The notes beneath the pieces are model-generated. The model was not told the DNA's origin and did not search any database. It saw only the letters and a program-made list of their open reading frames with translations. 64,000 nucleotides of DNA, from positions 1,860,001 through 1,924,000 of the forward strand of contig NZ_WBXN01000004.1 in the NCBI RefSeq assembly GCF_008973465.1, written 5' to 3'. Positions 40,517 to 41,083 of this stretch are shown piece after piece. The translations under genes were made by a program, and so were the position numbers. This DNA is from Streptomyces sp. SS1-1. Lineage in GTDB: Bacteria; Actinomycetota; Actinomycetes; Streptomycetales; Streptomycetaceae. Position 1 is the stretch's first letter. Every line of letters starts with the position of its first letter.

Positions 40517-40528
40517 CCCGGATGGGGA

Positions 40529-40545
40529 ATACCCCCAGGGGGTAT
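40529..40545. promoter_or_regulatory. CsoR-type operator
   Basis: Perfect 17-nt palindrome ATACCCCC-A-GGGGGTAT, 46 nt upstream of the DUF4396 start. This is the G/C-tract form with flanking TA bounded by AT that copper sensors of the CsoR family bind in Streptomyces and other Gram-positives. The related RcnR/FrmR-type sensors recognise similar tracts, so nickel, cobalt or formaldehyde control cannot be excluded. Confidence 0.65.
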
Positions 40546-40591
40546 GTGGTTCCGGTGGAGCGAGAGACGGAACCACGCGTCAGGGGGCGTC

Positions 40592-41083
40592 ATGGAACAC
40601 GAAGCGCACGCGTCACACGGTCATCACCATCACGAGGGCATGACCGCCGGCGGTGGGTGGGAGACCGCCGTCCGGGCCACCCTGCACTGCCTCACCGGGT
40701 GCGCCATCGGCGAGGTGCTGGGCATGGTGATCGGCACCGCGCTCGGCTGGGGCACCGTGGTGACCCTGGTCCTGGCGGTCGCGCTCGCCTTCCTGTTCGG
40801 CTACACGCTCACCCTGCGCGGCGTCGTGAAGGCCGGCCTCGGGCTGGGCGCCGCCGTGAAGGTGGCGCTGGCGGCGGACACCCTGTCCATCGCGGTGATG
40901 GAGCTGGTCGACAACGGCGTGGTCGTACTGTGGCCGGGCGCGATGGACGCCGGGCTCGGCGACCCGCTGTTCTGGTGGGTGCTGGCGATCGCGCTGGCCG
41001 TCGCCTTCGTCCTCACCACTCCGGTGAACAAGTGGATGATCGGCCGCGGCCGGGGGCACGCGGTGGTGCACCAGTACCACTGA
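40592..41083 (+). CDS. DUF4396 membrane protein with His-rich N-terminus
   Basis: 163 aa from ATG 40592 with GGGGG upstream. The N-terminus is His-rich (MEHEAHASHGHHHHEG), followed by four membrane segments; the first carries HCLTGC, a possible metal-binding His/Cys group. The C-terminus ends VVHQYH. DUF4396 has no assigned function. The His cluster plus an upstream CsoR-like operator point to copper (or similar metal) handling, which is inference. It converges with the sulfite-oxidase-like gene with a 35-nt gap. Confidence 0.85.
   Translation: MEHEAHASHGHHHHEGMTAGGGWETAVRATLHCLTGCAIGEVLGMVIGTALGWGTVVTLVLAVALAFLFGYTLTLRGVVKAGLGLGAAVKVALAADTLSIAVMELVDNGVVVLWPGAMDAGLGDPLFWWVLAIALAVAFVLTTPVNKWMIGRGRGHAVVHQYH

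What the first reader, a model, noticed from the sequence alone, without database searches (positions are those of the whole stretch)
40529..41083. CsoR-like operator in front of a His-rich DUF4396 membrane protein
A perfect 17-nt palindrome (ATACCCCC-A-GGGGGTAT) sits 46 nt before a gene whose product starts with a HxxHASHGHHHHE-type metal-binding tail and has HCLTGC in the first membrane segment. CsoR-family copper sensors recognise this kind of G/C tract. DUF4396 has no known function; this would place it in copper (or nickel/cobalt) homeostasis.
Basis: partly seen in the sequence, partly recalled or inferred. Interest (0 to 1): 0.72.

Follow-up and report, generated by a model that had tools for sequence, protein, structure and literature searches.

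The report
CsoR-type copper switch controlling DUF4396
A DNA palindrome that fits the published binding site of the bacterial copper sensor CsoR sits just before the gene of an uncharacterised membrane protein, and does so before most of the related Streptomyces gene copies examined, so this protein family likely helps bacteria cope with excess copper.

Summary
ATACCCCCAGGGGGTAT (40529-40545) lies 46 nt before the ATG of a DUF4396 gene (40592-41083) and fits the published Streptomyces CsoR operator. Its core TACCC-N5-GGGTA occurs at six places in this 7.8-Mb genome: before csoR, twice before one copZ-copA pair, before a second, before this gene, and once inside a coding region. It lies within 400 bp upstream of DUF4396 in 107 of 124 Streptomyces-genus loci (downstream control 0 of 124) and in 43 of 64 named loci of other Actinomycetota. 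A TANNNT hexamer directly abuts it in 78 of the 107. The 9-bp spacing fits CsoR, not the sulfane-sulfur paralogue (8 bp). In Pseudomonadota 7 of 13 loci carry a CueR-type operator instead. DUF4396 also occurs fused to the domain of the secreted protein divergent from copZA. Copper-regulon membership is strongly supported but untested at the bench. The His-rich N-terminal tail is variable; the conserved part is HCxxGCxxGE and DTxSIxxMExxDN within a predicted four-helix protein. Best mechanism: CsoR-derepressed Cu(I) export or hand-off (moderate confidence).

The parts
40529..40545 (.). CsoR-type operator, ATACCC-N5-GGGTAT (TAC-N9-GTA)
   Evidence: rule from PMC3902906 passages; conserved in 107 of 124 loci
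40545..40550 (+). position of the -10 hexamer by homology (here TGTGGT, a poor match)
   Evidence: TANNNT at this offset in 78 of 107 relatives; the window itself does not fit TANNNT
40522..40527 (+). position of the -35 hexamer by homology (here ATGGGG, a poor match)
   Evidence: TTG at this offset in 29 of 107 relatives; no sigma-70 consensus found here
40583..40587 (+). putative ribosome-binding site GGGGG
   Evidence: read from the sequence
40592..41083 (+). DUF4396 gene, 163 aa; four predicted membrane helices at residues 19-51, 55-80, 85-113, 125-151
   Evidence: PF14342 E 3.6e-45; AlphaFold2 mean pLDDT 86.7

Best explanation
The palindrome at 40529-40545 matches the published CsoR operator and is likely where the copper sensor CsoR represses the DUF4396 gene, whose predicted four-helix membrane product would bind Cu(I) at the cytoplasmic face and pass it outward when copper is in excess. 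Shown by calls: the motif, its conservation, its spacing, its fixed place next to a -10-like hexamer in relatives, its company of copZA and csoR in this genome, CueR-type operators before DUF4396 operons in some Pseudomonadota, the invariant residues, and the fusions to an extracytoplasmic-type domain. Inferred: CsoR binding, copper derepression, both ends inside the cell, copper ligation by H32, C33, C37, E41, D96, M103, E104, D107 and the terminal histidines, and outward transfer to a partner such as the HxHP-domain protein. My confidence is about 0.93 for copper-regulon membership and about 0.4 for translocation; the figure given is for the whole statement.
For: Operator rule met. Genome-wide places are otherwise copZA, copZA, csoR and one coding site. 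Conserved in 107 of 124 Streptomyces-genus loci, 0 of 124 in the downstream control, about 0.04 expected from genome-wide counts. TANNNT abuts it in 78 of 107, mean 0.03 at 38 offsets further downstream. 43 of 64 other Actinomycetota loci have it and 55 of 64 have it or a copZ/copA/csoR-like gene in the fetched stretch. CueR-type dyad in 7 of 13 Pseudomonadota loci. H32, C33, C37, E41, D96, M103, E104, D107, H156, H160 invariant in 50 of 50 short-type sequences. Fusion to the domain of the secreted protein beside copZA1.
Against: No binding, expression or metal data. 17 of 124 loci lack the strict motif, 5 of them at the same conserved gene neighbourhood. The window's own -10 and -35 hexamers are poor and no sigma-70 consensus was found. 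G/C tracts are parted by one base here, whereas type 2 sites are described with two to four. Some plasmid copies have no copper neighbour. No solved structure supports a transporter fold. PF14342 is found in only 36 of 296 genomes drawn over the phylum, so it is an accessory.
Confidence: 0.55

Rival explanations
1. The gene is in the CsoR regulon, but the protein is a membrane-anchored Cu(I) buffer, or an accessory to CopA or to the secreted HxHP-domain protein, and moves no copper itself.
For: Small size, His-rich ends, CopZ-like, CopA and DUF305/CopM neighbours, fusions to an extracytoplasmic-type domain and one CopA-DUF4396 record.
Against: Invariant acidic and sulfur residues lie within helices rather than at the ends, and the N-terminal His tail is dispensable.
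Confidence: 0.38
2. The site serves the CstR-like sulfane-sulfur repressor (own genome C4:6870471), so the protein belongs to sulfur stress.
For: That repressor binds a very similar palindrome (PMC7533328 passages); on plasmid pFRL5 a sulfur operon lies a few genes away.
Against: Its site is one base shorter. Before DUF4396 the TAC-N9-GTA form is in 107 and the N8 form in 1 of 124 loci, and 46 against 3 of the 80 named loci. csoR and both copZA have N9; 3 of the 6 N8 sites of this genome lie at the CstR-like locus (all N8 sites together, 6, do not exceed their control of 9).
Confidence: 0.03
3. The site is read by a nickel/cobalt (RcnR-type) or formaldehyde (FrmR-type) sensor.
For: Same protein superfamily; both own-genome members score weakly against the RcnR and FrmR models, below cut-off.
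Against: RcnR sites are type 1, TACT-G6-N-AGTA; this is type 2. Only two members of the sensor family were found in this genome. Neighbours are copper genes.
Confidence: 0.03
4. The palindrome is a transcription terminator of the upstream gene or a chance palindrome.
For: It begins 13 nt after the stop codon of the upstream TIM-barrel gene.
Against: No T run follows and the scan lists no terminator there; it accompanies DUF4396 also where the neighbours differ and keeps a fixed offset to a -10-like hexamer.
Confidence: 0.01

Closest known systems
CsoR operators of Streptomyces lividans: csoR, copZA1, copZA2 (PMC3902906)
   Same: ATACCC-N5-GGGTAT, TAC-N9-GTA, in front of a gene; the same motif precedes csoR and both copZA of this genome
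   Different: precedes a DUF4396 gene, not among the three S. lividans targets named in the passages seen; one base rather than two to four between the G/C tracts
Sulfane-sulfur repressor ScCsoR / CstR sites (PMC7533328)
   Same: C-tract and G-tract palindrome of the same repressor superfamily
   Different: ATACC-n6-GGTAT, one base shorter; sits at rhodanese/TauE genes
CueR/HmrR operators (PMC1526738)
   Same: found here before DUF4396 operons of Microvirga and Phenylobacterium; another copper sensor's promoter-spacer palindrome
   Different: MerR-family activator, unrelated to CsoR; not the control in this window
CopZ-CopA copper efflux
   Same: shared operator type and frequent neighbour genes
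   Different: DUF4396 has no HMA or ATPase domain; only PF14342 matches

Membership tests
CsoR type 2 operator | TAC/GTA inverted repeat spanning 9 bp; ATACCC-N5-GGGTAT | tested here: met
CsoR type 2 operator | two G/C tracts parted by two to four bases, about 11 bp between AT-rich ends | tested here: inconclusive
   11 bp between ATA and TAT, but one base between the tracts
CsoR type 2 operator | binding by apo-CsoR, release by Cu(I) | not testable with these tools
   needs a bench test
CsoR regulon | Cu-type CsoR encoded in the genome with its own operator | tested here: met
   PF02583 at C4:3391268, operator at C4:3391105; C...H...C seen, ligand role recalled
CsoR regulon | operator conserved before orthologues | tested here: met
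   107 of 124 and 43 of 64 loci
CsoR regulon | copper-induced transcript | not testable with these tools
   no expression data at hand; PMC3366776 not held
CstR-type sulfane-sulfur operator | ATACC-n6-GGTAT spacing | tested here: not met
   n7 here; 1 of 124 loci has n6
RcnR type 1 operator | TACT-G6-N-AGTA single G tract | tested here: not met
DUF4396 (PF14342) | score over the curated cut-off | tested here: met
   154.2 bits, cut-off 27
Known copper transporter folds | structural match of the predicted model to a solved transporter | tested here: inconclusive

The most novel reading that the evidence does not exclude
DUF4396 is a new family of small four-helix Cu(I) exporters or conduits that hand copper to an extracytoplasmic HxHP-domain partner, wired independently to two unrelated copper sensors: CsoR in Actinomycetota and CueR in Alphaproteobacteria.
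Probability: 0.4. Interest if true: 0.8.

Novelty: new member of a known kind. Interest (0 to 1): 0.62.

Why it matters
It gives a widespread family of unknown function a specific, testable role in copper stress, and would add a further operon to a CsoR regulon for which three CsoR-bound sites are named in S. lividans (PMC3902906 passages). In the library searched (5.39 million open papers) DUF4396 occurs in one paper, as a flank of a metal-resistance island, and PF14342 in none. If DUF4396 moves copper, it is a transporter family for which no convincing solved relative was found here.

Tried and rejected
Terminator or chance palindrome: rejected. Sulfane-sulfur repressor site: disfavoured by spacing. 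Ni/Co or formaldehyde sensor: disfavoured. The N-terminal His tail as the defining copper site: rejected as a family trait (start codons there were chosen by a simple rule). Structure: sequence search of solved structures gave one match at E 0.56; fold searches gave nothing convincing, which excludes no family. NCBIfam had no model for the window protein. PMC3366776, the main paper on the S. lividans CsoR regulon, is not held, so whether it reports this gene was not checked; the S. coelicolor and S. lividans genomes were not examined. The background rate of copZ/copA/csoR-like genes near random genes was not measured beyond the window itself (no hit in 64 kb).

Rows dropped: one search listed 128 places; 125 loci were in hand (30 returned, 95 fetched); 3 rows (two fragments and a second piece inside L132) were not fetched separately; 124 had a tblastn match (L133 had none). 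One search scanned 81 of the 109 neighbour proteins found. One search listed 120 of 1013 matches. Taxa of the 80 loci were sorted by record title.

Full report
What is there. The 17-mer ATACCCCCAGGGGGTAT is at 40529-40545 and nowhere else in the window. It starts 13 nt after the stop of a TIM-barrel gene (ends 40516) and ends 46 nt before ATG 40592 of a 163-aa protein that matches DUF4396, PF14342 (E 3.6e-45). A longer frame from ATG 40544 would overlap the operator; ATG 40592 has a G-rich ribosome site.

Match to CsoR. Abstract and passages of PMC3902906 give the S. lividans rule: a TAC/GTA inverted repeat spanning 9 bp, most conserved positions ATACCC and GGGTAT around N5, and Cu(I) abolishing binding. 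The window has ATACCC-N5-GGGTAT. One detail differs: the G/C tracts are parted by one base, where type 2 sites are described with two to four.

Own genome. TACCC-N5-GGGTA has six places in 7.8 Mb; the reversed-pattern control has two. Two lie between a 331-aa secreted-type protein and a copZ-copA pair, one before a second copZ-copA, one 163 nt before the csoR domain, one is the window's, and one is inside a coding region that I read as eccB by eye. DUF4396 is single-copy here. The csoR product has the C...H...C residues that I recall as Cu(I) ligands; the second family member (L008) lacks that His and sits by what I read as TauE and rhodanese genes.

Conservation. PF14342 was found in 107 of 150 Streptomyces-genus genomes, 106 over the cut-off. 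Of 124 loci with a tblastn match, 107 (a different 107) have the strict motif within 400 bp upstream of the domain and 0 of 124 have it in a 400-bp downstream stretch. Over the 150 genomes the motif averages 6.5 places, control 2.4, so about 0.04 of 124 would be expected. Among the 107, 55 show the window's three neighbour genes; 31 show none of the markers tried (some loci have short flanks). The 17 misses: 11 close homologues, of which 5 at the window's neighbourhood and one (L045) with a single-mismatch site; 4 distant proteins (about 25% identity); 2 fragments.

Promoter. Aligned on the palindrome, 78 of 107 have TANNNT directly after it, against a mean of 0.03 at 38 offsets further downstream; 29 have TTG at the start of a hexamer 17 bp before. 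The operator would thus fill the -35/-10 spacer and bound repressor would exclude polymerase (inference). The window's own hexamers are poor (TGTGGT, ATGGGG), and no sigma-70 consensus was found.

Copper or sulfur. The sulfane-sulfur repressor of S. coelicolor binds ATACC-n6-GGTAT (PMC7533328 passages), one base shorter. In this genome 3 of 6 such short sites lie at L008, though all six together do not exceed their control of nine; csoR, both copZA and DUF4396 have the long form. Before DUF4396 the long form is in 107 and the short form in 1 of 124 loci, and in 46 against 3 of 80 named loci.

Beyond Streptomyces. PF14342 is patchy: 36 of 296 genomes over the phylum. Of the 80 named loci kept, 64 are Actinomycetota by title: 43 have the operator, 22 a copZ-, copA- or csoR-like gene in the fetched stretch, 55 either one; 12 of the 21 without operator have such a gene, and 10 of the 43 with it. 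None of the 16 others has the CsoR motif. Of the 13 Pseudomonadota loci, 7 (six Microvirga loci, one Phenylobacterium) have CCTT-N11-AAGG within 900 bp upstream, each after TTGA; in all 175,614 bases of these loci there are 12 such places. The published CueR signal is ACCTTCCC-(5)-TGGAAGGT (PMC1526738 passages). On Kineococcus pKRAD01 a metal-sensitive regulator, an HMA protein, a P-type ATPase and DUF4396 follow each other, with one small opposite-strand gene between the last two. DUF305-like hits are in 28 of 80 loci, and the DUF305 query scores as CopM metallochaperone. Copies without a copper neighbour in the stretch shown exist.

The protein. In 50 short-type sequences H32, C33, C37, E41, D96, S99, M103, E104, D107, W128, N146, H156 and H160 are invariant. 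The N-terminal tail has from no His to many. AlphaFold2 gives four long helices, mean pLDDT 86.7; no solved fold matched convincingly. Basic residues between helices 2 and 3 and at the C-terminus suggest both ends inside (read by eye). Fused relatives add a fifth hydrophobic segment before a domain 47% identical to the secreted-type protein divergent from copZA1, which fits an inside C-terminus. Of the 120 listed proteins of fusion-like length (1013 matched), 117 carry that domain; the 120 form 66 clusters at 80% identity. One, P0121, joins a CopA part to DUF4396; it is a single record and may be an error.

Mechanism. Likely: excess Cu(I) takes CsoR off the operator, DUF4396 is made, and its intramembrane ligands pass Cu(I) from the cytoplasmic side to an outer partner. 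A buffer or CopA accessory is the main rival. The regulatory part is strongly supported by sequence; the activity is inference.

Print status. DUF4396 appears in one paper of the library, in a sentence on the flanks of a metal-resistance cluster, PF14342 in none. A search joining CsoR, Streptomyces and transport terms listed 8 of 29 papers, none titled for this family. PMC6414726 passages name S. coelicolor genes putatively repressed by CsoR, without DUF4396.

Noticed in passing
L001:1501-1562 (own genome C4:734673-734734): Two CsoR-type operators in tandem lie between copZ-copA and a divergent 331-aa secreted-type protein with HLHP and HVHP motifs; that protein's domain is the one fused to DUF4396 elsewhere.
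   Followed up: partly
L181, L192, L195, L200, L204, L210, L228: CueR-type operators (TTGACCTTCCCATGATGGGAAGG and variants) upstream of operons that hold DUF4396, in several with a small CxxC HMA-like gene first.
   Followed up: partly
L162:6655-7587 and L163:4906-5811: An F510_1955 family glycosylhydrolase lies next to DUF4396 on two actinobacterial plasmids; PMC6414726 passages call SCO6710 a glycosyl hydrolase putatively repressed by CsoR. Whether these are the same family was not checked.
   Followed up: no
L127, L128, L129: A longer DUF4396 type (284-311 aa, about 25% identical) keeps HC but lacks the ME-x2-DN residues and has no CsoR motif upstream; possibly a different function.
   Followed up: partly
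L008 and L252 (own genome C4:6870412-6873367): A CstR-like gene beside TauE and rhodanese genes has three 14-bp TACCC-N4-GGGTA sites around it, one base shorter than the CsoR sites of the same genome.
   Followed up: yes
neighbours of the 20 loci without operator or cop genes: DUF305 and DUF4142 proteins are the commonest neighbour families there (6 of 81 scanned proteins each).
   Followed up: no
P0121: A single record joins a CopA-type ATPase part in frame to DUF4396; it may be real or a draft-genome error.
   Followed up: partly
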